Both the position numbers and the translations under genes were made by a program. Below are positions 26,937-54,332 of a stretch of DNA of 64,000 nucleotides, piece after piece. The notes under the pieces are model-generated. The model searched no databases. It was not told the origin of the DNA and was given only the letters and a program-made list of their open reading frames with translations. Source of the stretch: Plantactinospora soyae (lineage in GTDB: Bacteria > Actinomycetota > Actinomycetes > Mycobacteriales > Micromonosporaceae); the NCBI RefSeq assembly GCF_014874095.1, contig NZ_JADBEB010000001.1, positions 2,108,001 through 2,172,000 on the forward strand. The letters run 5' to 3'. Within the stretch, counting starts at the first letter, position 1; every line of letters starts with the position of its first letter.

Positions 26937-27027
26937 GGAGACTTCGCCTAGTCTGGTCTATGGCGCCGCACTGCTAATGCGGTTGGGGTCTTAAAGCCCC
27001 TCCCGGGTTCGAATCCCGGAGTCTCCG
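26937..27027 (+). tRNA. tRNA-Ser (anticodon GCT)
   Basis: A 91-base type II tRNA. The acceptor GGAGACT pairs with AGTCTCC. The anticodon loop CTGCTAA gives GCT, with stem CCGCA/TGCGG, a long variable arm, and T arm CCGGGTTCGAATCCCGG. Confidence 0.95.
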
Positions 27028-27061
27028 CGCTATGGCCGGTGTGTAGACTGGCCCGGCACCT

Positions 27062-27134
27062 GCGCCCGTAGCTCAACGGATAGAGCATCTGACTACGGAT
27101 CAGAAGGTTAGGGGTTCGAATCCCTTCGGGCGCG
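27062..27134 (+). tRNA. tRNA-Arg (anticodon ACG)
   Basis: A 73-base tRNA. The acceptor GCGCCCG pairs with CGGGCGC. The anticodon stem-loop TCTGA-CTACGGA-TCAGA gives ACG. The T arm AGGGGTTCGAATCCCTT is present. Its 3' end borders the accessory region with the integrase remnant, suggesting past use as an attachment site. Confidence 0.96.
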
Positions 27135-27144
27135 CCTTCTTGAA

Positions 27145-27176
27145 CAGGGAAGATAGCCGACCAGCTATCTTCCCTG
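27145..27176 (+). terminator. Hairpin after tRNA-Arg
   Basis: Perfect 13-bp arms (CAGGGAAGATAGC and complement, 27145-27157 and 27164-27176) with loop CGACCA begin ten bases after the tRNA. There is no following T tract. Confidence 0.8.
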
Positions 27177-27428
27177 AGGCCATGTGAGTCACGTCTGCGA
27201 CCCACGCGCAAGGCTCCGTTTGGCCCCGCTGAGCTGGTCGATCGCGCCAGCGCGCAGCGGTTCGAAGAGGGTGCGTGCGAAGAGCCCGATTCCCTAGCTT
27301 TTGGTCGTAGTTAGATGCATGTCTATCTTGTTGGGGATAGATTTTGCAGCTTGACTATGGAATCAGGAACTATGAGCGCAATGTTCGATTCTGGGACCGG
27401 GTTGTAGAAGACCGATCAACCCGAGGGG

Positions 27429-27757
27429 CCGGGGACGCCTCTTTTCGTGCACGCGAATGGCCGCCCGGTTAGCCCGGACTGGCTGACCCGCCGGTTCGCG
27501 AAGCTGGTCAAGCAACTGGGCTGCCACCGGTGCGGTTGCATGACCTGCGGCACGCCGCTGCGGGACTGGCCTCGGCGGCTGGGGTGGACCTGAAGATGAT
27601 CCAGCACGACATGGGGCACGCCAGCCCGGCGACCACAGCGGAAACCTACATCTACATATTCAAGAAGATGGCTAAGGAGGCGGTGCGCGCCAGCGCCGCG
27701 TTGCTGCTGTCCCACGCGAGGGTCCGTATGTCGCTGGAGGGCACCTCTCAGGCGTGA
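27429..27757 (+). pseudogene. Tyrosine recombinase (integrase) C-terminal remnant
   Basis: Only the last 110 residues of a roughly 400-residue integrase remain. The first part reads LFVHANGRPVSPDWLTRRF and AKLVKQLG. A missing base near 27519-27522 then shifts the frame to LPPVRLHDLRHAAAGLASAA, VDLKMIQHDMGH and TAETYIYIFKKM. The Arg of HDLRH, the HxxR-like GHAS region and the Tyr in ETYIYIF mark the catalytic core. It lies 295 bases downstream of tRNA-Arg, the usual site for such an element. The frameshift and N-terminal loss make it inactive. Confidence 0.85.
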
Positions 27758-44488: not shown

Positions 44489-45253
44489 ATGTCAGTGACC
44501 TCGGCCGACGACGCCGTCAGTGTCGAACGTGTCAGCAAGACGTACGGCGGTGAGCAGCCTGTCGTGGCGCTGGCCGACGTCGACGCCCGGTTTCTCCGGG
44601 GGACGATGACGGCGGTGATGGGACCGTCCGGCTCCGGCAAGAGCACGCTGCTGCACTGCGCGGCGGGCCTGGACCGGCCCACGTCGGGCGTGATCCGGAT
44701 CGGCGGTACCGACCTGTCGTCCATGTCCGAGAAGCAGTTGACCAAGCTGCGTCGCAGCCGGATCGGCTTCGTGTTCCAGGCGTTCAACCTGGTGGGCGCG
44801 CTGACCGTGGAGCAGAACATCCTGCTGCCGTCGCGACTCTCGCGCAGCCGCCCGGATCGGGCCTGGCTCACCGAGGTGGTCGAACGGGTGGACCTGGGCA
44901 ACCGGCTGCGGCACCGGCCGTCGGAGCTCTCCGGTGGCCAGCAGCAGCGGGTGGCCATCGCCCGCGCGCTCGTCACCCGGCCCGAGGTGATCTTCTGTGA
45001 CGAACCGACCGGCGCGCTCGACACGCAGACTGCGGCGGAGGTCCTGGGGTTGCTGCGATCGGTGGTCGACGAGGCCGGGCAGACCGTCATCATGGTGACC
45101 CACGACCCGGTCGCCGCGTCCTACGCCGACCGGGTCATGGTGCTCGCCGACGGCCGGATCGTGCAGGACATGCCGCAGCCCGGAGCCGAGCGGATCGCCG
45201 AACAGTTGGCGCTGCTCGGCCGCCGGCAGCCCGTCGCGAGCCGGGAGGGCTGA
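44489..45253 (+). CDS. ABC transporter ATP-binding protein (MacB/LolD type)
   Basis: A 254-residue ATPase: Walker A MGPSGSGKSTLLHCAAGL, Q loop FVFQAFNLVGALT, signature LSGGQQQRVAIARAL, Walker B VIFCDEPTGALD and H loop VTHDP. It belongs to the family that drives lipoprotein release or mechanotransmission exporters. ATG 44489 follows GGAAGG. The permease follows three bases later. It is divergent from the orphan NarL regulator. Confidence 0.95.
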   Translation: MSVTSADDAVSVERVSKTYGGEQPVVALADVDARFLRGTMTAVMGPSGSGKSTLLHCAAGLDRPTSGVIRIGGTDLSSMSEKQLTKLRRSRIGFVFQAFNLVGALTVEQNILLPSRLSRSRPDRAWLTEVVERVDLGNRLRHRPSELSGGQQQRVAIARALVTRPEVIFCDEPTGALDTQTAAEVLGLLRSVVDEAGQTVIMVTHDPVAASYADRVMVLADGRIVQDMPQPGAERIAEQLALLGRRQPVASREG

Positions 45254-45256
45254 GCC

Positions 45257-47791
45257 ATGCTCGGACTGGCCGCGCAGATGCTGCGCTTCCGCAAGCGCAG
45301 TTTCGTGGCGACGTTCGTCGCGCTCGCCGCCGGCGTCATGATCCTGATGGCGTGCGGGCTTCTGGTGGAATCGGGGCTGCGCTACCACGGCCTGCCGCAG
45401 CGGTACGCCGAGACGGTCGCCGTCGTCGCCAACCGCGACCTCACGGTGGTCGGACCGAAGACGTTCGGCGAGGAGGAACCCACCTCCACCACGGTGGCGC
45501 TGCCCGAACGCGGCAGCGTCCCGGACTCGCTGGTCGCGGCGATCGCCGAGGTGCCCGGCGTGGCCAGCGCCGTAGGTGATCATTCGATCGTGGCGACGGT
45601 GGCAGCGTCGCCGGGGTTGCCGACCACGGGCCACGGCTGGGGCAGCGCCGCCCTCGCACCGTACCGGGTGGCCTCCGGCACGCCACCGCGGTCCGACGGT
45701 GAGATCGCCGTCGACGCCCGGCTCGCCGCGGGCGGGCGGCTGAGTCCCGGCGACATTACAGCGATCATCACCGGGGGGACCGCCCACGAGTACCGGGTGA
45801 GCGGTGTCGTCGAGGCGGCTGGCGCGGACGGCCCGACAGCGGCACTGTTCTTCACCGATGCGCGGGCGGCTCGGCTGAACGCGCACCAGGGCAACGTCGA
45901 CGCGATTGGCGTGCTCGCCGAGCCGGGTGCCGACCGGTCGGCTGTAGTGGCGGCGGTGCGCCGGGTGGCGGCCGAGGCGGGAGCCAAGACGTACACGGAC
46001 GCCGAGCGGGGACTGGTCGAGCAGCCCGAGGCGGCGGGCGCGCGGGGGTTGATCGTCGGGGCCGGCACCGCGTTCGGCGGCTACGCCGCGATGATCATCA
46101 TCTTCGTGGTCGCCGGGACGGTCGGCCTGTCGGTCCGGCACCGCCGCCGCGACCTCGCCCTGCTGCGGGCGATCGCGGCGACCCCGGGCCAGGTGCGGCT
46201 GATGATCCTCGGCGAGGTGGGCCTGCTCAGCCTGCTCGCCGCCGTGGTGGGCATCCCGGCCAGCCTGGCCGCCACCGCCTGGACCCGGGACGAACTGGTA
46301 ACCCGAGGGTTCGTCCCCGAGACCTTCACCCTGGGCGGCGGCATCCTGTCGGCGCTGGCGGTGACCGTGGCGGTGGCCGCCATCGCGCTGGCCTCCGCCT
46401 GGATCGCCGCGCTGCGTACCACCCGGATCCGCCCCACCGAGGCGCTGGGCGAGGCGGCCGTCGAGCCGACACTCGGCGGCAGGACCCGGGTCGTGTTCGG
46501 CCTGGTGTTCCTGGCCAGCGCGGTGTCCCTGATCGGCCTTACCGGCTTCGCCACCGGCCAGACCGCGATGGGCGCCGCGGTGGGCATGCTGTACACGTTC
46601 GTGCTGGCGATCGCACTCCTCGCCCCGTGGATCAACCAGGCCGCCGCCCGGCTGCTCGGGCCGGTCCTGCGGATCGTCTGGGGGAACAGCGGATACCTGG
46701 CCGCCGCGAACATGCGGGCGAACGCCCGCGGCATGGTCGCCGTGCTGACCGCGCTGGTGCTCTCCGTCGGTTTCGGCGGCTCGGTCTGGTTCCTACAGGA
46801 CAACCTGGCACGCCAGACGGTGGTCCAGAGCCAGGACGGCTCGCTCGCCCAACAGGCGCTGATCGGCGGCGCCGGCCTGCCCGCGTCGGCCACCGCCAAA
46901 GCCCGCCAGATCCCGGGGGTCCTCGCCGCAACCGGAGTGCGCCGCACGTCGGTGATCGTGCCCAACATGTTCGAAGCCCAGGCGGTGGTCGCGCAGGGCA
47001 TCGACCCGCAGGGTGCGGACCAGACGATGGATCTCCGGGTACGGTCGGGAAGTCTCGGCGATCTGCGTGGCGACACCGTGGCGGTGTCCAGTTCGCAGGC
47101 GGAGTCGTCGGACTGGCGGCTCGGCGGCGACGCGCGACTGTGGCTCGGCGACGGCACGCCGGTCACCCTGCGGGTCGTCGCGATCTACGACCGGGGCTGG
47201 GGATTCGGTGACATCACCCTGAACAGCGAGACGCTCACCGGCCACACCGTGACCGGCCTCGACGACCGCGTCCTGATCCGTACCGCGCCCGGTGCCGACG
47301 TCGGCGCGGCCCTGGCGAAACTCGCGGCCGAGTATCCGGCGAGCACCGTGGTCGGCACGGACCAGCTCACCGGCGAGCTCGCCCAGGACCTGGCGATCAG
47401 CGCCTGGCTGAACAAGCTGCTGATCACCGTGCTGGTCGGGTACGCGGTGCTCGCGGCGGCCAACACGCTGAGCATGGCGGCCCTGGCCCGGACCCGGGAA
47501 CTGTCCCTGCTGCGCCTGATCGGGGTGACCCGCGGCCAGGTGAAGCGGATGGTCTACGCCGAACAGGCCGGCCTGCTGGGTGTGGCAATCTCGATCGGTG
47601 CGACGATCGCGGCGGTCACCCTCTCCTCGATCGTCAACGCCGTGGCCGGACAGCGCATCCCGTACGTTCCAACCGCCGGCTGGATCACCATTGTCGGCGG
47701 TACCGTCGCGCTCGCGCTGGTCGCTACGATGCTGCCGATCGGCCGGCTGCTGCGCACCCCGCCGGTCGAGGGCGTCGGCATCCGCGAGTAG
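45257..47791 (+). CDS. ABC transporter permease with two FtsX domains (MacB/FtsX type)
   Basis: An 844-residue permease with the double-FtsX layout: a first membrane helix (FVALAAGVMILMACGLLV), a large extracytoplasmic region, three helices of the first FtsX domain (about 275-395; RDLALLRAIAATPGQVRLMI), a pair of helices, a second extracytoplasmic region, and the last FtsX domain (about 725-835; RTRELSLLRLIGVTRGQVKR). ATG 45257 follows GGGAGGGC. Such transporters export peptides or antimicrobials, or move lipids; the substrate is unknown. The terminator at 47816 follows. Confidence 0.93.
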   Translation: MLGLAAQMLRFRKRSFVATFVALAAGVMILMACGLLVESGLRYHGLPQRYAETVAVVANRDLTVVGPKTFGEEEPTSTTVALPERGSVPDSLVAAIAEVPGVASAVGDHSIVATVAASPGLPTTGHGWGSAALAPYRVASGTPPRSDGEIAVDARLAAGGRLSPGDITAIITGGTAHEYRVSGVVEAAGADGPTAALFFTDARAARLNAHQGNVDAIGVLAEPGADRSAVVAAVRRVAAEAGAKTYTDAERGLVEQPEAAGARGLIVGAGTAFGGYAAMIIIFVVAGTVGLSVRHRRRDLALLRAIAATPGQVRLMILGEVGLLSLLAAVVGIPASLAATAWTRDELVTRGFVPETFTLGGGILSALAVTVAVAAIALASAWIAALRTTRIRPTEALGEAAVEPTLGGRTRVVFGLVFLASAVSLIGLTGFATGQTAMGAAVGMLYTFVLAIALLAPWINQAAARLLGPVLRIVWGNSGYLAAANMRANARGMVAVLTALVLSVGFGGSVWFLQDNLARQTVVQSQDGSLAQQALIGGAGLPASATAKARQIPGVLAATGVRRTSVIVPNMFEAQAVVAQGIDPQGADQTMDLRVRSGSLGDLRGDTVAVSSSQAESSDWRLGGDARLWLGDGTPVTLRVVAIYDRGWGFGDITLNSETLTGHTVTGLDDRVLIRTAPGADVGAALAKLAAEYPASTVVGTDQLTGELAQDLAISAWLNKLLITVLVGYAVLAAANTLSMAALARTRELSLLRLIGVTRGQVKRMVYAEQAGLLGVAISIGATIAAVTLSSIVNAVAGQRIPYVPTAGWITIVGGTVALALVATMLPIGRLLRTPPVEGVGIRE

Positions 47792-48721: not shown

Positions 48722-49117
48722 CTAGAGTTCGCCACGTTTGCGCAGCCAGTCAAAGATCAGCTTGTCTACCGTGGACGACATCTCCCTACCGGAATAGTCG
48801 AGCCAGGACATCTCTTCGATCTCCGCGCCGGGCGTGAGTTCACCCTTGTATTCTGCCCGGTAGCAGGTCATCCGGACGATGACGCCCTCAGCCTTTCCGT
48901 GCGCCTGGGCCTCGAAGACCTCCATCGGCTCAATCGATCCGTCGATCAGTTCGACGCAGAGTTCTTCCCGGATCTCCCGCTTGAGGGCCTCGTGATCCGT
49001 CTCGCCCTCGTCCCGCTTGCCCCCCGGTATGTACCACGCGTCCTTGCCGTATGACCTGGTGCTCAGGACCTTGCCGTCCGTCACGTGCACCCACGCGAGC
49101 TTGTCAATGACCTTCAT
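48722..49117 (-). CDS. Nudix hydrolase, last gene of the acquired operon
   Basis: A 131-residue Nudix enzyme with an intact box: GGKRDEGETDHEALKREIRE followed by EL, fitting GX5EX7REUXEEXGU except for the final Gly. It should hydrolyse a nucleoside diphosphate-linked compound in the cytosol. ATG 49115-49117 is preferred because GAGGG lies five bases upstream; GTG 49123 would be too close. It is 16 bases downstream of the phosphoribosyltransferase-like gene and ends the nine-gene operon. Confidence 0.88.
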   Translation of the reverse strand: MKVIDKLAWVHVTDGKVLSTRSYGKDAWYIPGGKRDEGETDHEALKREIREELCVELIDGSIEPMEVFEAQAHGKAEGVIVRMTCYRAEYKGELTPGAEIEEMSWLDYSGREMSSTVDKLIFDWLRKRGEL

Positions 49118-49133
49118 TATCACCCTCGGTTAT

Positions 49134-50153
49134 TCAATCGATTATTGATTTGATACGGTCGCGGTGGGCACAGCATTGTGCAAGCAGAGTTGTCGAGTCA
49201 AGTGGGCGCGCGGTGGGCTGGGGCCCGCCCCGGCCGCCGCCATGATCGACTTCCACAATCGCGGGAAAGTCGTTCTTGACTCCGAGATGGTGCCGGATCA
49301 GTTTCGGCTCGGCGGCAAATTCATCGCATAGCTCGGTCCAGTAATCGAGCAGGCTGCGGAGGTGTTCGGCCGGGGAGAACCCGCGCAGGCCACCGTCGTA
49401 GACGACGCACCGTTCCAGCAGGGCGATCGGGTCGCGGGCGGACTCAGCCCGGAACTCCGGTGCGATCACACCGCCGCGCCGGACAAAGTCCGTCTGGTCG
49501 AGGTGGAAGGGCAGCCCGTATGCGCTGCGGTAAACGCCGAAGAGCCCTTCGAGCGCGACGACGGTCAGCATCGTCGCCGGGTTAGTCAGGGCCAGTCGGG
49601 CGGCCAGCTCATCGAGCCGCCGCACCGCGTCGGCGGTGCCGATGGTGACTACGACGATCCGGGGCGGCAGCAGCGCCGGATTGGCGGCGGCGAGGAGCGA
49701 GAGTGCGTTGGCGAGGGTACGGCCCGTGGCGGCGATGTCGCCGACGCAGAGCACGGCCGACCCGGCCAGGTTGAAGCGGCGGTAGTCGTCGCCCGTGACG
49801 ACCGGTCGCCCCCGTGCGACGCTGCGCTGGCTGCTCAGGAAGCTCACCCGGCACGCGCGCCCGGACAGCTCCTCCAGCACGCCGTGCAGTCCGAAGTTCA
49901 GCCCGCCGCGTAGGATGTAGAGCACGTCCGCCGGTGTTGCGGCGAGGGTCCGGGCCAGGTCGGCATCGTGTCGCAGCAGCGCGCCGAGCGCCTCGGCGCA
50001 GCAGCGCCGCAGGAGGTCCTGGAAGGCCGAGCCGACCAGGGTCGAATCGCGCAGCAGCCGACGACCGGGCGGGCACGAAAAGACGTACGCCCCGAGCCGA
50101 CCCGCCCACTCGAGCCGGTGTAGACCCGTCACCCCGGCCGGTGCGAGTCGCAT
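49134..50153 (-). CDS. Phosphoribosyltransferase-like protein
   Basis: A 339-residue protein with a type I phosphoribosyltransferase core. ADVLYILRGGLNFGLHGVLE (about 75-94) is the substrate/PPi loop region, and AVLCVGDIAATGRTLANAL (about 133-151) is the PRPP-binding motif, with Asp-Ile-Ala in place of the usual acidic pair. The C-terminal 130 residues (EHLRSLLDYWTELCDEF) are specific to this protein. ATG 50151-50153 follows GAGGTG. It could transfer or remove phosphoribose from a base made by the upstream enzymes. The weakened acidic pair makes the activity uncertain. Confidence 0.75.
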   Translation of the reverse strand: MRLAPAGVTGLHRLEWAGRLGAYVFSCPPGRRLLRDSTLVGSAFQDLLRRCCAEALGALLRHDADLARTLAATPADVLYILRGGLNFGLHGVLEELSGRACRVSFLSSQRSVARGRPVVTGDDYRRFNLAGSAVLCVGDIAATGRTLANALSLLAAANPALLPPRIVVVTIGTADAVRRLDELAARLALTNPATMLTVVALEGLFGVYRSAYGLPFHLDQTDFVRRGGVIAPEFRAESARDPIALLERCVVYDGGLRGFSPAEHLRSLLDYWTELCDEFAAEPKLIRHHLGVKNDFPAIVEVDHGGGRGGPQPTARPLDSTTLLAQCCAHRDRIKSIID

Positions 50154-50165
50154 CAGCGCGTCACC

Positions 50166-50759
50166 TCAGAACTTCCGGGCCGGCACACTCGGACGTACCC
50201 CGTACCGGAGGTCCAGCATCCGGCGGTACGCGTGTACCGCCTCGCGGCCGTTGTTAGTCCCGATCGGGGCCGGCAGCGGGGTCTCGTCGCGGACAACGAG
50301 CCGCACCACGCCGACCGGTGCGGAGGCCGCGAGCGCCGCTGCGACCTCGACGGGTCGGTACGCCTGCCCGAAGGGCAGACTGAACGCGCCGACCAGGGCT
50401 GGCCAGTCCAGCGGGAAGTGACGGGAGGGGAGGTTGCCGCCCGACTCGTACCGCTCGTTGTCGAGGACCACGGCGGTGAACCCGCCGAGCCGCCCGCGCA
50501 GGCTGGCCAGGGTGGCCAATCCGGCCAGCCCGAACAGTAGGGAACCGTCCCCCTCGACCGAGAGGACCCGGCCGGCCGGTCCGAGCCCGAGGGCGAGTCC
50601 CGACGCGACCGGGAGCACATCGCCGAGCGCGTCCAGGTGCAACGTCCGCTCCGGCCAGTACTGGCCAGCGGTCCAGCCGGCCCGGCCGACCCCGGCGACC
50701 ACCGCCACGTCCCCGCCCACGGCCTCGCGCACCGCGCCAACGGCCTCAGCCGAGTTCAC
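50166..50759 (-). CDS. Thiamine-diphosphate decarboxylase, beta (TPP-binding) subunit
   Basis: A 197-residue protein with the TPP-binding signature: VEGDGSLLFGLAGLATLASL (GDGS at 70-73) through VVLDNERYESGGN (Asn101). It resembles the beta subunits of split sulfopyruvate or phosphonopyruvate decarboxylases (ComE-like). GTG 50757-50759 overlaps the alpha-subunit gene by 14 bases, so the two subunits are translated together. The likely reaction is decarboxylation of a 2-oxo acid to an aldehyde; the acid is unknown. Confidence 0.82.
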   Translation of the reverse strand: MNSAEAVGAVREAVGGDVAVVAGVGRAGWTAGQYWPERTLHLDALGDVLPVASGLALGLGPAGRVLSVEGDGSLLFGLAGLATLASLRGRLGGFTAVVLDNERYESGGNLPSRHFPLDWPALVGAFSLPFGQAYRPVEVAAALAASAPVGVVRLVVRDETPLPAPIGTNNGREAVHAYRRMLDLRYGVRPSVPARKF

Positions 50760-51255
50760 GCCGCAGCCCCTTCAGCAGCTCGGGGGCGGCCACCACGACG
50801 GCGGAGCGCATCCGGGTCGCGACCACGTCGAGCCCGCCGCGCAGTGCCCGGGTCAACTCGGTCGGAGTCGCGGCCACCGTGCCGACGAGGGCGAAGAGCG
50901 AGATCAGCCCGCGCATATGATCGGAATGGTACTGGGCCCACCAGTTCGGGTCGCCGTACCCGCCGCGGTCGGAGACGAGCGTCAGCAGCGGCAGTTGGTG
51001 CAGCACCACGAGCCGCGCGATGGTCTCACCGGCCGCCCGCAGACCCGAGTTCTCCATGCAGACCAGGGGACGGCGCCCGGCGAGGGCCAGTCCGACCGCC
51101 ATGGCGACCGCCTGGGACTCGTGCACGGTCTGGAGGTAGTCCAGATCGGTCGTCTCGACCACCCGGCGGACGACCGGCGTCAACATCGAATCCGGAACGG
51201 TGACGACACAGTCGATCTCCGCAGGAAAGAGGCTCTCCCACTCGAAGCGCCTCAC
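50746..51255 (-). CDS. Thiamine-diphosphate decarboxylase, alpha subunit
   Basis: A 169-residue pyrimidine-binding half. VVTVPDSMLTPVVRRVVE matches the PDSxL segment of phosphonopyruvate/sulfopyruvate decarboxylases. HESQAVAMAVGLALAGRRPL carries the cofactor-activating Glu, followed by VCMENSGLR and TLVSDRGGYGDPN. GTG 51253-51255 overlaps the stop of folE (GTGA), so the genes are coupled. It works with the beta subunit encoded next. Confidence 0.82.
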   Translation of the reverse strand: MRRFEWESLFPAEIDCVVTVPDSMLTPVVRRVVETTDLDYLQTVHESQAVAMAVGLALAGRRPLVCMENSGLRAAGETIARLVVLHQLPLLTLVSDRGGYGDPNWWAQYHSDHMRGLISLFALVGTVAATPTELTRALRGGLDVVATRMRSAVVVAAPELLKGLRRELG

Positions 51256-51821
51256 CGCGGCGCGCTTCCGACGGGAAGGTCACGCCACTGGCCGAGGCTG
51301 CCGCGGGCGTACGTCGTGGTGTTCCAGACCTCCTGCTTGTTCGGGCCGCGCCCGCAGACGCAGAGGTGCTGCGCAGTGGTGCGGACGAAGGCTCCTCTGG
51401 CGTGCACCGCGTCCATCAGGTCCTCGCAGAGATCGCGGGCTAGGAATTCCTGGATCTGAAACCGCCGCGCCCGCATCTCCACTAGGCGTGGCAGCTTGCC
51501 GATACCAAGGATCACGGCGCCGGGTTGGTAGGCCATCGCTACGTGGCCGAAGAACGGGAGCAGGTGGTGCGCGCAAAGCGACACGAAGGGAATGTCGTGG
51601 GCCGTCACGACGCCGTCGTACTCGACCGTGGGATCGAGTACGACGGTGACCTTGATGAGGTCGGCCCGGTTGATCCGGTAACCGGAGAGCAATTCCCGGT
51701 AGGCGTTGGAGATTCGTTCCGGCGCCTCCGCCTGGGAATCGACGATGGCGGCGGCGACCTCGGGGAGATCGGGGTGCAGCGACGCGATCCAGTCGTTGAG
51801 AGCCTGTTGCGGATCACCCAT
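51252..51821 (-). CDS. folE: GTP cyclohydrolase I
   Basis: A 189-residue enzyme with the full FolE core. Zinc and catalytic residues are in VSLCAHHLLPFFGHVAMAYQ and TTAQHLCVCGRGPNKQ. The GTP-binding helix is GKLPRLVEMRARRFQIQEFL. It opens the GTP imidazole ring to give dihydroneopterin triphosphate, or the precursor of 7-deazapurines. No other folate genes are nearby, so this looks like a second, pathway-specific copy. ATG 51819-51821 overlaps the cupin stop by eight bases and is preferred to TTG 51830. Confidence 0.92.
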   Translation of the reverse strand: MGDPQQALNDWIASLHPDLPEVAAAIVDSQAEAPERISNAYRELLSGYRINRADLIKVTVVLDPTVEYDGVVTAHDIPFVSLCAHHLLPFFGHVAMAYQPGAVILGIGKLPRLVEMRARRFQIQEFLARDLCEDLMDAVHARGAFVRTTAQHLCVCGRGPNKQEVWNTTTYARGSLGQWRDLPVGSAPR

Positions 51822-52119
51822 GAGGGTCAAGGAACTCTACGATGACGTTCTGATACACGGAGTCGCCGAGATTGACGAGCCGATGCGGTTCATTGTCAGA
51901 TCGACGACAGGAGTCGCCGACCTTGTCGTCCTGGTATTCCAGCCGGCCATCCTGGTACTCCGTCGCCACCGGCCCGGCACGGGTCACGACGTAACGGTAG
52001 GGGGCGCGATGAGTGTGCCACGGAGAAGACGCCTGCGGCGGCAGGTCGAGTATCCACACCCGTAGGTTTTCGTCCTCGAAAACAACCTCGGTACCGACCT
52101 GGTCATTTGCAGGATCCAC
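51814..52119 (-). CDS. Small cupin-domain protein
   Basis: A 101-residue single cupin: PWHTHRAPYRYVVTRAGPVA (motif 1 with two His), then EPHRLVNLGDSVYQNVIVEF (motif 2). It may be a small metal-dependent isomerase or a binding protein. GTG 52117-52119 follows GGTGA. It overlaps folE by eight bases, indicating a joint role with that enzyme. Function is not deducible from sequence. Confidence 0.78.
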   Translation of the reverse strand: MDPANDQVGTEVVFEDENLRVWILDLPPQASSPWHTHRAPYRYVVTRAGPVATEYQDGRLEYQDDKVGDSCRRSDNEPHRLVNLGDSVYQNVIVEFLDPHG

Positions 52120-52197
52120 CGGTTCACCGCGCTTTCGTGATCCTCCGCCGCGAAACTTCGGCGGGTTCAGTTATTGCAACGCTAGATGAGCCTGAAA

Positions 52198-52626
52198 CTA
52201 CGTTTCTACATCGACGCCCGCCGCTCGGTCAAGTGCCCGCCGAAGCTCCTGGAATTCCCGGTACGGCAGATCTGGCGCAAGCCGGCTTAGCTGCCACACG
52301 AGGGCGTTGGCGGCATTTCGCTCACGAGCCGGACCGATCTGGTCGTCGAGGCTACCCAGAATCCAGAGATAGAGAATCGCCAGCGGATACGCGGTGTCGG
52401 CGATGTCGAACCGGAGGCCGAACACGTCCTGTACCGATTCCGGCAGGTCGAAGTTGCGGCCATCGGAGTGGCAGGAGTGCAGCTCGCGGGAGAGTGTGGC
52501 CAGGGAGCGCCGTTCGGCGCCGTCCGTGACCCGCCAGCCGATGTGCTGCCCGACTGACAGATCGACCCCGGCGCGGATGATGGTTCGGCACATCTCCTGG
52601 CCGATCCCCCCGATCACCAACGGCAT
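52198..52626 (-). CDS. Unrecognised protein of the acquired operon (142 aa)
   Basis: A 142-residue soluble, mostly helical protein starting MPLVIGGIGQEMCRTIIRAG. ATG 52624-52626 follows GGGAGGAGAG, a strong ribosome binding site that excludes the longer frame. Features are SRELHSCHSDGRNFDLPESV, a polar His/Cys-containing stretch, and YLWILGSLDDQIGPARERNA. No family is recognised. It lies between another unknown gene (132 bases upstream) and the cupin (78 bases downstream), the loosest spacing in the operon. Confidence 0.7.
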   Translation of the reverse strand: MPLVIGGIGQEMCRTIIRAGVDLSVGQHIGWRVTDGAERRSLATLSRELHSCHSDGRNFDLPESVQDVFGLRFDIADTAYPLAILYLWILGSLDDQIGPARERNAANALVWQLSRLAPDLPYREFQELRRALDRAAGVDVET

Positions 52627-52758
52627 CGAACTCTCCTCCCTGGCTGATCTCGGCTGCTGTGCCGGCCTTAACTGGCAACGAGAGCGATTGGGCCACTGTC
52701 TCAAACCACCGTCATGTCGACAATCTAGACGCACCATCCCAACCGCCGGATCAAGTCT

Positions 52759-53715
52759 TCATGCGCGGATCCCCCTCTGATAGAGCGAACGTTCCAGGTG
52801 CATCAGCAGCAGGTACGGCCGCAGTTCCTGGGCGATGCGCCGCCAACGAAACGCCTTGGTGCCATACTTCAGCACGATGCTGGCGGGGACGGTGGCGCCG
52901 AGTACGTCCCAGATGATCTCGCCGCTGATCTCGGGGCCCAGCTGGGGCAGCGCGTACTCCGCCGAGATGGCCCGGTACCGGTTCGTGATCTCTCGGGCGG
53001 TGGCTTCGGGGGTCAGCACCGGGTCCACACCCCGGGCGACCGCAAGCAGCGACTCGTCGAGCAATAGACGGAAGTCGCGGCTGAACCGGCGGCACTCCTC
53101 GACCTGGTCGGCCGTGAGTCGCGTCAGCGAGCCGAGCTGCATCTGGGCGATGACGTCCCGCACCACCGCAGTCTGGAAACTTCCCCCAGAGCTGCCGCGG
53201 AAACTCCTGGTCAGCGCGGTACGCACCGCCGGGTTGGTCAACATGCCGTCCTGGTTGAGCTCGCTCGAGATCACGAGCGACGCGAGGTGGTTCCGCAGAC
53301 CCACTATCTCGGCCGTTCCTTGCCGCAGCTTCATCGGTGCACCCGACTCACCGCCATAAGCCAGTTCCCGCACCGAACGCATCACCTCGTCCATCTCGCC
53401 CAGTCCGGCGCCGAGGGTCGCGGTGGGCAGGACCAGATCGCTGGGGCGCCGCGTTCCGTCGGCGGCGGTCGGCGTATGGACCTCCCCCGAGTCGTCCACC
53501 TCGTACTCGTGCGCCCAGAGCTTCACGAAACCCTGGTCCCGCAGCTCCAGGACGCGGTGTTCGATCAGCGCGGCGTCGGCCCGGTCCGTCGGGGCCACCT
53601 CGTACGACGACCGGATCGCGATCGAGTCGGCGAAGAAAACGACCGCCTGCAGGACCCGGTCCAGCGTGTCGTACCCGACGAGCCCGCTGTCCAGCATCGT
53701 GAGCGATCGTTCCAT
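52759..53715 (-). CDS. Unrecognised protein of the acquired operon (318 aa)
   Basis: A 318-residue soluble protein. The N-terminal half has LDRVLQAVVFFADSIAIRSS and KLWAHEYEVDDSGEVHTPTA; the C-terminal half is helical (DQVEECRRFSRDFRLLLDES, SGEIIWDVLGATVPASIVLK). The ending KYGTKAFRWRRIAQELRPYL is basic. No family or catalytic motif is recognised. ATG 53713-53715 overlaps the stop of the thymidylate-synthase-like gene by one base (TGATG), so the two are translationally coupled and may act together. Confidence 0.75.
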   Translation of the reverse strand: MERSLTMLDSGLVGYDTLDRVLQAVVFFADSIAIRSSYEVAPTDRADAALIEHRVLELRDQGFVKLWAHEYEVDDSGEVHTPTAADGTRRPSDLVLPTATLGAGLGEMDEVMRSVRELAYGGESGAPMKLRQGTAEIVGLRNHLASLVISSELNQDGMLTNPAVRTALTRSFRGSSGGSFQTAVVRDVIAQMQLGSLTRLTADQVEECRRFSRDFRLLLDESLLAVARGVDPVLTPEATAREITNRYRAISAEYALPQLGPEISGEIIWDVLGATVPASIVLKYGTKAFRWRRIAQELRPYLLLMHLERSLYQRGIRA

Positions 53716-54332
53716 CACTGCCTCGTGAGATAGGTCAGGAAGTCAACCTCGTAAAGATGGGCGCTCCAGCACTGGTACGACACCGTGCTGCGCCGCACGC
53801 CGAGGTCAAGCGCGAATTCGGTGGCGAGTTGCGCGAAGGCGAGTAGTTCCGGCACGAAGCCGACCCAGACGTCGACGCTCCGCGCGGTCACGAAGAGGTG
53901 GAGCGTGTCGGAGACCACCCGCACCGCACCACCGACCGGCGAGACGGGAAAGGCCGCCTCCAGGTCGGCCGGGGGCAGCCAGGTGGAGAAGACCGCGGAG
54001 CGGCTGCTGGGTTCCCGGCGCAACAGGTCGGTGATGTGTTCGAGCTGGTCGAACGCGTCGAGGTCGTCCTCGCGCCACCGGCGCATGCGCTGGAACAACA
54101 GCGATTTGTCGCGCTGCGTACCGAAGAGCCGGTCCCGGTAGTCCTTGATGAGTTCCGGGTACCGATAGTCGGCCGGAGCGGTGAGATCGTTCGGATTGTC
54201 TAGCCACACCGTAAGACCGGGCAGGTCGAACGAGATTCCGTGCCGGGTGGCGACCCGGGTCGGTCCACCGCTCCGGAACAGATCCAATACCTGTGGCCAG
54301 CCGGTTTCTACGGTCTCAATCGTGACTTCCAC
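53715..54332 (-). CDS. Thymidylate-synthase-superfamily protein lacking the catalytic Cys
   Basis: A 205-residue protein, shorter than typical ThyA. TS landmarks are TARSVDVWVGFVPELLAFAQ (the RSxDvxLGxPfN region, about 150-169) and QCWSAHLYEVDF (the DAHIYxNH motif, about 187-198). At the position of the catalytic loop (LPPC in TS) the sequence reads PVSPVGGAVRVVS with no Cys. It could be a TS-fold modifying enzyme using other chemistry, or a binding protein. GTG 54330-54332 is preceded by GGGGGC. It is the first gene of the nine-gene minus-strand operon. Confidence 0.72.
   Translation of the reverse strand: MEVTIETVETGWPQVLDLFRSGGPTRVATRHGISFDLPGLTVWLDNPNDLTAPADYRYPELIKDYRDRLFGTQRDKSLLFQRMRRWREDDLDAFDQLEHITDLLRREPSSRSAVFSTWLPPADLEAAFPVSPVGGAVRVVSDTLHLFVTARSVDVWVGFVPELLAFAQLATEFALDLGVRRSTVSYQCWSAHLYEVDFLTYLTRQ

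What the first reader, a model, noticed from the sequence alone, without database searches (positions are those of the whole stretch)
48722..54332. Nine-gene compact operon combining GTP cyclohydrolase I, a TS-like protein, a split TPP decarboxylase, a PRTase-like and a Nudix enzyme
All genes share the minus strand. The cupin-folE-alpha-beta block overlaps by 4-14 bases, and the TS-like gene and its neighbour overlap by one base. Known families supply GTP ring opening (FolE), 2-oxo acid decarboxylation (ComDE/phosphonopyruvate decarboxylase type), phosphoribose chemistry (PRTase motif) and nucleotide hydrolysis (Nudix). Two further proteins are unrecognised. I do not know a described pathway with this combination. 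Inference: biosynthesis of a modified nucleotide, nucleoside or pterin, or a nucleotide-based defence metabolite.
Basis: partly seen in the sequence, partly recalled or inferred. Interest (0 to 1): 0.88.

Follow-up and report, generated by a model that had tools for sequence, protein, structure and literature searches.

The report
Azacytidine-like nucleotide operon with TS-like module
Nine genes in an actinobacterium look like a pathway that rebuilds a cellular nucleotide into a toxic look-alike resembling the drug azacytidine, joined to a three-gene set whose relatives sit among anti-virus defence genes.

Summary
The nine genes are real and conserved: G743, a genome of another genus in the family, has all nine in the same order and strand (44-81% identity). 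Six of them (cupin, FolE-like, split TPP enzyme alpha/beta, PRTase-like, Nudix) form a core found in 8 genomes, including Micromonospora, Actinomadura and Streptomyces. Close relatives of four core proteins have solved structures; the TPP pair's entry is titled "alpha-imino acid decarboxylase (AzcB and AzcC)". I read the core as an azc-type pathway from GTP to a 1,3,5-triazine (5-azapyrimidine) nucleotide. That Azc means 5-azacytidine is my inference; no paper was found. Each core genome has a separate housekeeping-type folE. The other three genes (TS-like, 318-aa, 142-aa) form a second module, with the 318-aa gene in 9 of 354 family genomes: two join the azc core, seven a radical-SAM/NDT-like/HisG-like set. 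Proteins around those seven match 108 PADLOC families, against 2 in random regions of the same contigs; the window's own neighbours match few. All nine TS-like proteins lack the catalytic cysteine. Function is unproven: antibiotic or immune metabolite.

The parts
53715..54332 (-). TS-like protein, 205 aa: thymidylate-synthase fold without the catalytic cysteine
   Evidence: PF00303 42.7 bits, TIGR03283 63 bits, under that model's cut-off; Ser aligned with the catalytic Cys, Glu where TS has Asn, Arg-Ser-x-Asp and His-x-Tyr kept; 81% identical in G743
52759..53715 (-). 318-aa protein of unknown family (319 aa with the upstream GTG at 53718)
   Evidence: No Pfam or NCBIfam match; found in 9 of 354 family genomes; AlphaFold model too poor to use (pLDDT 37.5; mostly helical)
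52198..52626 (-). 142-aa protein of unknown family
   Evidence: No family match (scanned with the longer 179-aa reading); 44% identical in G743; 27-33% relatives beside the 318-aa gene in 7 of 7 further loci
51814..52119 (-). small cupin, relative of solved cupin 9u8n/9u8o/9u8p
   Evidence: Cupin_2 23 bits, under the cut-off of 27.2; 41% identical to the L032 cupin, which matches 9u8n with 194 bits
51252..51821 (-). FolE-like GTP cyclohydrolase I of the core-cluster clade (TTG start at 51830 also possible)
   Evidence: PF01227 139 bits; best PDB match 9ujf 141 bits, next 96; clade of 8 cluster FolEs, support 100/99, with CAHH and G[LI]GK in 8 of 8
50746..51255 (-). TPP enzyme alpha subunit, AzcB-like
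   Evidence: PF02776 38 bits; profile A1 matches 9u8r with 246 bits; entry title AzcB and AzcC; conserved Glu at the usual TPP-enzyme position
50166..50759 (-). TPP enzyme beta subunit, AzcC-like
   Evidence: PF02775 28 bits; profile A4 matches 9u8q_G with 232 bits; GDGS...DN motif
49134..50153 (-). PRTase-fold protein, 339 aa, UPRTase-like, altered PRPP loop (GDIAATG)
   Evidence: PF00156 27.2 bits, cut-off 26.3; best PDB matches of profile A3 are uracil PRTases, E 1e-4; GDI.[AG][TS]G in 8 of 8 cluster homologues
48722..49117 (-). Nudix hydrolase, 131 aa (GTG start at 49123 also possible)
   Evidence: PF00293 46 bits; Nudix box; 79% identical in G743

Best explanation
The operon joins two modules. 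Module 1 (cupin, FolE-like, AzcB/AzcC-like TPP enzyme, PRTase-like, Nudix) is an azc-type pathway. The FolE-like enzyme opens the imidazole ring of GTP; having lost the Ser of the GLSK motif, it may stop before the pterin closes and leave the ribosylated pyrimidine (inferred). The cupin oxidises and opens the pyrimidine ring to an alpha-imino acid (inferred). The TPP enzyme decarboxylates that acid (by homology), and the fragment closes to a 1,3,5-triazine, i.e. a 5-azacytosine- or 5-azauracil-type base (inferred). The UPRTase-like protein and the Nudix enzyme handle the phosphoribosyl and phosphate groups (inferred). Module 2 (TS-like, 318-aa and 142-aa proteins) acts on the resulting nucleotide. 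The TS-like protein keeps the phosphate- and sugar-binding residues, carries an acid where TS reads the base, and lacks the nucleophilic Cys. A 5-aza ring offers a nitrogen in place of the carbon that TS must activate, so a Cys-free one-carbon transfer, or simple binding, is possible (inferred). The product would be an antimetabolite nucleotide or nucleoside.
For: All nine genes colinear in G743. Six-gene core in 8 genomes. TPP profiles match AzcB/AzcC crystal structures at 246 and 232 bits; the next alpha and beta structures, phosphonopyruvate decarboxylase RhiEF, score 57 and 52. FolE, alpha and cupin of the L032 core match 9ujf, 9u8r and 9u8n at 379, 330 and 194 bits. Cluster FolEs form one clade apart from the 11 other copies in the same 8 genomes, with residue changes in 8 of 8. 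The PRTase profile's nearest solved relatives are uracil PRTases. Three Micromonospora-type loci add class II RNR, methyltransferase, Maf and an F420-type oxidoreductase, apt for a deoxynucleoside. TS-like motif changes in 9 of 9. [quoted passage not shown]
Against: The meaning of 'Azc' is inferred; no paper was found and the PDB titles are cut off in the listing. Identity of the window core to the L032 core is only 34-57%, so the substrate may differ. The PRPP loop lacks its first acid, so PRTase activity is uncertain. No phosphatase stands beside the window operon by eye. Nothing explains the 318-aa and 142-aa proteins.
Confidence: 0.6

Rival explanations
1. It is an anti-phage system: the nucleotide analogue poisons phage replication, and the TS-like, 318-aa and 142-aa proteins sense infection or deliver the analogue. 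The azc core and the radical-SAM/NDT/HisG set are interchangeable suppliers of different analogues.
For: The same three genes sit beside radical-SAM/NDT-like/HisG-like genes in 7 loci and beside the azc core in 2, and no locus of about 20 kb held both. Around the seven, 108 PADLOC families match among 69 proteins at E<=1e-15, against 2 among 120 proteins of random regions of the same contigs; named examples are BrxC/PglY and a GmrSD-type protein at L063 and a type I restriction enzyme at L065. The radical-SAM protein weakly matches prokaryotic viperin models, E 5.5e-8 over 81 residues. Patchy presence: 9 of 354 family genomes.
Against: Neither the window nor the G743 locus is in a recognised defence island: 4 PADLOC families (mad3, subtilase, two IetS models) among 51 proteins. 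Of the nine window proteins only the Nudix has a PADLOC match, to PDC-S07. No relative of the 318-aa protein in plasmids or viral contigs, nor of the TS-like protein in viral contigs. The PADLOC counts are not spread evenly: L068 shows no defence gene by eye.
Confidence: 0.35
2. It is an ordinary nucleoside-antibiotic cluster; module 2 only tailors the triazine nucleotide, and the defence-rich location of its relatives is incidental.
For: In L032, L033 and the Micromonospora-type loci the same core lies near P450, NRPS adenylation/carrier, MFS-type, methyltransferase or RNR genes (some named by eye). G743 has an MFS-type transporter (EmrB model 151 bits, cut-off 230) and, by eye, a MarR-type regulator next to the operon. 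By eye, an ABC transporter gene pair (44489-47791, + strand) ends 0.9 kb from the window operon.
Against: The window's ABC pair is on the opposite strand and of a common type, and no NRPS or other biosynthetic gene was seen beside the operon by eye. The defence-gene enrichment around the seven relatives is large.
Confidence: 0.4
3. It makes a pterin, folate-like cofactor or 7-deazapurine, as FolE normally helps to do.
For: FolE fold with zinc-site Cys/His and the guanine-binding Gln-x-Gln-Glu kept (roles recalled). Tubercidin's cluster combines GCH I, PRTase, Nudix and a sugar kinase (PMC6112128, passages read).
Against: No QueD- or QueE-type family among the nine. Ser of GLSK lost in 8 of 8 cluster FolEs, kept in 11 of 11 others. 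A stronger folE lies elsewhere in each of the 8 genomes. The partner enzyme is an imino-acid decarboxylase homologue.
Confidence: 0.1
4. Two unrelated operons happen to be neighbours: TS-like/318-aa/142-aa and the azc core do not act together.
For: Each module occurs without the other nearby: core without module 2 in 6 loci, module 2 without the core in 7. A 78-base gap separates them.
Against: They adjoin in the same order and strand in two genera, at 44-81% identity and dS of 0.65-1.39, and module 2 stands beside a nucleotide-handling gene set in 9 of 9 loci.
Confidence: 0.12

Closest known systems
AzcB/AzcC TPP-dependent alpha-imino acid decarboxylase (PDB 9u8q, 9u8r, 9u8s), with cupin 9u8n-9u8p and GTP cyclohydrolase 9ujf
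   Same: Same two-subunit architecture and full-length matches; in L032 the three near relatives of these structures are neighbours, with a PRTase gene between.
   Different: Window proteins are only 34-57% identical to the L032 core, no large biosynthetic cluster was seen around them, and they carry module 2.
8-azaguanine (pathocidin) pathway, PtnA / 8-AzgF
   Same: A GCH I-like enzyme acting on GTP is placed at the start of an azapurine antimetabolite pathway (PMC7109123 and PMC7674941, passages).
   Different: That pathway uses nitric oxide; none of the nine genes here is a nitric oxide synthase.
Thymidylate synthase / CMP hydroxymethylase family
   Same: Fold, Arg-Ser-x-Asp and His-x-Tyr.
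   Different: Catalytic Cys replaced by Ser and base-reading Asn by Glu in 9 of 9.
Tubercidin / toyocamycin clusters
   Same: GCH I, PRTase and Nudix in one cluster (PMC6112128, passages).
   Different: No CPH4 synthase, radical-SAM or UbiD gene among the nine.
Prokaryotic viperins (pVip)
   Same: Radical-SAM nucleotide chemistry in defence; weak profile match of the partner radical-SAM in relatives.
   Different: The window has no relative of that radical-SAM gene; the similarity is local (81 residues).

Membership tests
AzcB/AzcC-type alpha-imino acid decarboxylase | Two-subunit TPP enzyme matching AzcB/AzcC over full length | tested here: met
   246 and 232 bits with five-sequence profiles that include the window proteins; window alpha model 40-41% identical to the structures
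AzcB/AzcC-type alpha-imino acid decarboxylase | Glu of TPP enzymes in alpha and DG...N TPP motif in beta | tested here: met
   Glu46 invariant in A1; window beta reads GDGS...DN, most relatives TDG[SG]...DN (the pattern missed L030 alpha, which reads DEATAI)
AzcB/AzcC-type alpha-imino acid decarboxylase | Decarboxylation of an alpha-imino acid | not testable with these tools
   Needs an enzyme assay
Sulfopyruvate / phosphonopyruvate decarboxylase | Score above NCBIfam equivalog cut-off | tested here: not met
   TIGR03845 60 of 148 bits, TIGR03846 37 of 221, TIGR03297 57 and 27 of 312
azc-type gene cluster | Cupin, TPP alpha/beta, PRTase, FolE (and Nudix) together | tested here: met
   6 of 6 core genes in the window and in 7 other genomes; in L032 the Nudix gene is about 3 kb further on. 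That the L032 core equals the published azc cluster is inferred
GTP cyclohydrolase I (FolE) | Zinc-site Cys, His, Cys and guanine-binding Glu | tested here: met
   CAHH, HLC, QIQE present; residue roles recalled
GTP cyclohydrolase I (FolE) | GLSK serine and CEHH glutamate of ordinary FolE | tested here: not met
   GIGK and CAHH in the window; changed in 8 of 8 cluster copies; GLSK in 11 of 11 and CEHH in 10 of 11 other copies
Thymidylate synthase | Catalytic cysteine | tested here: not met
   Ser aligned with Cys in the ungapped alignment to 4dq1; PVSPVGG in 9 of 9 rows (MAFFT puts a gap opposite the Cys of L010)
Phosphoribosyltransferase | Two-acid PRPP loop followed by T/S-G | tested here: inconclusive
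   GDIAATG keeps one acid and the TG; Pfam 27.2 against 26.3 bits; loop consensus recalled
Anti-phage defence system | Location among defence genes | tested here: inconclusive
   Not met for the window and G743; met as a group for the seven other loci holding module 2
Anti-phage defence system | Protection from phage | not testable with these tools
   Needs plaque assays
Nudix hydrolase | Nudix box | tested here: met
   GGKRDEGETDHEALKREIREELCV; the Gly near the end of the box quoted is Cys here

The most novel reading that the evidence does not exclude
The TS-like/318-aa/142-aa genes are the fixed core of an undescribed bacterial immune system that runs on nucleotide analogues, with exchangeable suppliers: an azacytidine-type pathway from GTP in the window and G743, and a radical-SAM/NDT/HisG pathway in Micromonospora-type genomes and a second genus. 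A fossil thymidylate synthase without its catalytic cysteine is the receptor or finishing enzyme of the analogue.
Probability: 0.3. Interest if true: 0.92.

Novelty: new variant of a known kind. Interest (0 to 1): 0.72.

Why it matters
5-azacytidine and its deoxy form are drugs, and I found no account of a natural route to 1,3,5-triazine nucleotides in the library searched. This operon is a compact version of such a route, tied to a cysteine-free thymidylate-synthase relative that may do new one-carbon chemistry or sense an analogue. If the defence reading holds, bacteria would use azacytidine-like nucleotides as immune weapons, as viperins do with chain terminators, and the interchangeable supply modules would give a handle for finding more.

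Tried and rejected
Dead ends. (1) The 319-aa protein and the PRTase found no relatives in plasmids; the 319-aa protein was in 1 of 61 near genomes, its own, and had none in viral contigs, nor had the TS-like protein. The phage collection was not searched. (2) PRTase in 394 class genomes gave five short partial matches besides the window; loci L003-L007 were not followed. (3) Structure models: AzcB-like pLDDT 48, used only to reach PDB entry titles; 318-aa protein pLDDT 37.5, not used for a fold search. (4) Ten paper searches found no account of the azc pathway or of this gene combination; one search gave the 8-azaguanine papers, and (a review of purine nucleoside antibiotics, passages) had nothing on it. 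(5) Six more distant TPP alpha relatives in a 396-genome phylum sample (L035-L040) keep alpha and beta but none of the other core genes within the about 3.4 kb held. (6) L028 (G542) has only weak TPP matches and was dropped from the core count. Rejected: pterin or 7-deazapurine product, sulfopyruvate/phosphonopyruvate decarboxylase, housekeeping folate role, PDC-S07 defence label for the Nudix gene.

Weak points of my own work. Gene calls in relatives come from a simple GC3 script, which misses or mis-starts some genes; many neighbour names were given by eye. For the PADLOC comparison only called proteins of 110 to 1300 aa were used (69 and 120), the module itself was left out, and one BrxC-sized neighbour of L067 fell outside the size limit. 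The tool counts families, not proteins or loci, so 108 against 2 overstates the number of defence genes (many models hit the same kinases) and does not show how many of the seven loci carry them; only nine test proteins were also scanned singly. The control is seven random regions. The patterns missed some motifs (TPP alpha of L030; Nudix of L025-L027 and L030).

Full report
WHAT IS THERE. The nine reading frames lie on the minus strand at 48722-54332, and each has the high third-position GC of real genes. In order of transcription they are: TS-like (205 aa), a 318-aa unknown, a 142-aa unknown, cupin (101), FolE-like (189), TPP alpha (169), TPP beta (197), PRTase-like (339) and Nudix (131). 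Pfam and NCBIfam give the families; the two unknowns match nothing. The 142-aa gene is set off by gaps of 132 and 78 bases; the rest is tightly packed.

CONSERVATION. A search of 354 genomes of the family with the TPP alpha protein gave four strong matches besides the window's: G743 (69%), G675, G717 and G662 (36-41%); the next score is about half as high. G743 holds all nine genes in the same order and on one strand, 44-81% identical. pN/pS between the two is 0.20-0.72 and dS 0.65-1.39. G675, G717 and G662 hold six of the nine: cupin, TPP alpha, TPP beta, PRTase, Nudix, FolE. A scan of the 84,980-species genome collection with the alpha alignment returned five loci. Two (L029, L031) have the contig lengths of the G675 and G662 contigs and so name these as Micromonospora sp. 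RP3T and M. rosaria. The other three, Actinomadura bangladeshensis (L030), Streptomyces sp. CB02056 (L032) and S. avicenniae (L033), also carry the six genes. So 8 genomes hold the core. Gene order is the same in the window and Actinomadura; in the others folE comes after the PRTase gene.

NOT HOUSEKEEPING. Each of the 8 genomes has an ordinary folE of 253 bits or more in addition to the cluster copy of 138-147 bits; three of them have a third copy. A tree of all 19 copies puts the 8 cluster FolEs in one clade (support 100/99; the program warns of long branches). All 8 read CAHH and G[LI]GK. The 11 others all read GLSK, and 10 of them CEHH. The zinc-site residues and QxQE are kept. From memory, the lost serine takes part in a later stage of the normal reaction, so an earlier product is plausible.

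WHAT THE CORE IS. The nearest solved relative of the window FolE is 9ujf (141 bits; next best 96). The alpha and beta profiles match 9u8r and 9u8q at 246 and 232 bits; the next structures score 57 and 52. A Foldseek run, used to read entry titles because the model is poor (pLDDT 48), names these entries [quoted passage not shown], released 2026-04-01. The cupin of L032 matches 9u8n with 194 bits over 99 residues, its FolE matches 9ujf with 379 bits over 176, and its alpha matches 9u8r with 330 bits over 168. Proteins of a Streptomyces cluster of this type are therefore under structural study. I read Azc as 5-azacytidine. That is my inference from the name and the chemistry; none of ten paper searches found an account. 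An imino-acid decarboxylase beside a GTP ring-opening enzyme suits conversion of a purine nucleotide to a triazine. The PRTase profile's nearest solved relatives are uracil PRTases, weakly (E 1e-4), which suits a pyrimidine-like base. Window proteins are 34-57% identical to those of L032, so the exact substrate may differ. A GCH I-like enzyme at the start of an azapurine pathway has precedent in 8-azaguanine (passages read).

VARIANTS OF THE CORE. In M. rosaria (L027) the core is followed by a class II ribonucleotide reductase (TIGR02504, 561 bits, cut-off 400), a methyltransferase, a Maf pyrophosphatase and a PfkB kinase, and preceded by a HAD-type hydrolase and an F420-type oxidoreductase (TIGR03619, 163 bits, just under its cut-off of 167); L025 and L026 carry relatives of all six. 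From memory, this set would suit 5,6-dihydro-5-azathymidine, a known Streptomyces product. S. avicenniae has only the Maf and oxidoreductase genes of this set. L032 and L033 lie near NRPS adenylation/carrier genes and P450 genes (L033 by Pfam; L032 by eye).

THE SECOND MODULE. A profile of the 318-aa protein found it in 9 of 354 family genomes: the window, G743, five of genus g4 (the genus of G662) and two of genus g30. It was in no genome but the window's in a 394-genome class sample. In all seven additional loci it stands beside the TS-like gene (53-65% identical to the window's) and a divergent relative of the 142-aa gene (27-33%). In those seven the azc core is absent from the 20 kb held; a radical-SAM protein, a nucleoside-deoxyribosyltransferase-like protein and a HisG-like protein take its place (Pfam on L063: HisG above its cut-off at 65 bits, the other two just below theirs). 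So a three-gene module pairs with one of two nucleotide-handling sets, and no locus held both.

TS-LIKE ACTIVE SITE. The ungapped alignment to 4dq1 puts Ser on the catalytic Cys and Glu on the base-reading Asn, while Arg-Ser-x-Asp and His-x-Tyr remain. The alignment rows of all nine members read the same motifs (the pattern mis-picked L024, whose row reads PVSPVGG). The other TS relative in this genome has a Cys there. From memory, an acid at the Asn position goes with cytosine-type bases. In a 5-aza ring the reacting carbon is a nitrogen, so losing the nucleophile need not end one-carbon chemistry. This is a hypothesis.

DEFENCE CONTEXT. Around the seven radical-SAM-type loci, 108 PADLOC families match at E<=1e-15 among 69 proteins. 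Seven random regions of 19.9 kb on the same contigs gave 2 families among 120 proteins. The hits include BrxC/PglY (1511 bits), a GmrSD-type protein and PDC-S02 at L063, and a type I restriction enzyme at L065. The tool does not say how the hits spread over the loci; L068 shows no obvious defence genes by eye. The window's and G743's own neighbours gave 4 families among 51 proteins: mad3, subtilase and two IetS models. Beside the window operon, by eye, lie an ABC transporter pair (44489-47791), a sigma-factor gene (55096) and a subtilisin-like gene (57068). The window operon is therefore not in a recognised island, and the immune reading rests on its relatives.

VERDICT. The core is an azc-type route, most likely to a 5-azapyrimidine nucleotide (confidence 0.6 for the whole statement). 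Whether the output is an antibiotic or an immune metabolite is open, at about 0.40 to 0.35. The new element is module 2 with its two interchangeable partners.

Noticed in passing
L063:6774-10878, L064-L069: Six-gene set radical-SAM, NDT-like, HisG-like, TS-like, 318-aa, 142-aa in regions rich in phage-defence matches; apparently a system of its own.
   Followed up: partly
L027:7305-17461 (Micromonospora rosaria), L025, L026: Core plus class II RNR, methyltransferase, Maf, PfkB, HAD and F420-type oxidoreductase: looks like a deoxy-triazine nucleoside cluster, perhaps for 5,6-dihydro-5-azathymidine (name recalled).
   Followed up: partly
L032:959-9244: Streptomyces sp. CB02056: two further proteins that by eye look PRTase-like, a diaminopimelate-type PLP decarboxylase and a HAD-like protein beside the core; the PRTase-like and HAD-like ones match no Pfam family at E 0.001.
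   Followed up: no
L030:1635-3602: The Actinomadura core is preceded by a 478-aa protein without Pfam match and a protein that by eye resembles a nucleoside deoxyribosyltransferase, also without Pfam match.
   Followed up: no
L010 (own genome 3501565-3502200): A second TS-family gene that keeps the Cys but has Asp where TS has Asn, as recalled for CMP/dCMP hydroxymethylases.
   Followed up: no
L049 (G717 contig 1, 5857004): A third FolE in G717 with CAHH but GLSK, on a long branch outside the cluster clade.
   Followed up: no
window 26937-27757: tRNA-Ser and tRNA-Arg followed by a short ORF (27530-27757) that reads like the end of an integrase: possible old integration site (by eye).
   Followed up: no
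L063-L069: The 142-aa gene relative is on the opposite strand to the 318-aa gene in 5 of 7 loci (L063-L067), tail to tail, but on the same strand in L068, L069, the window and G743.
   Followed up: no
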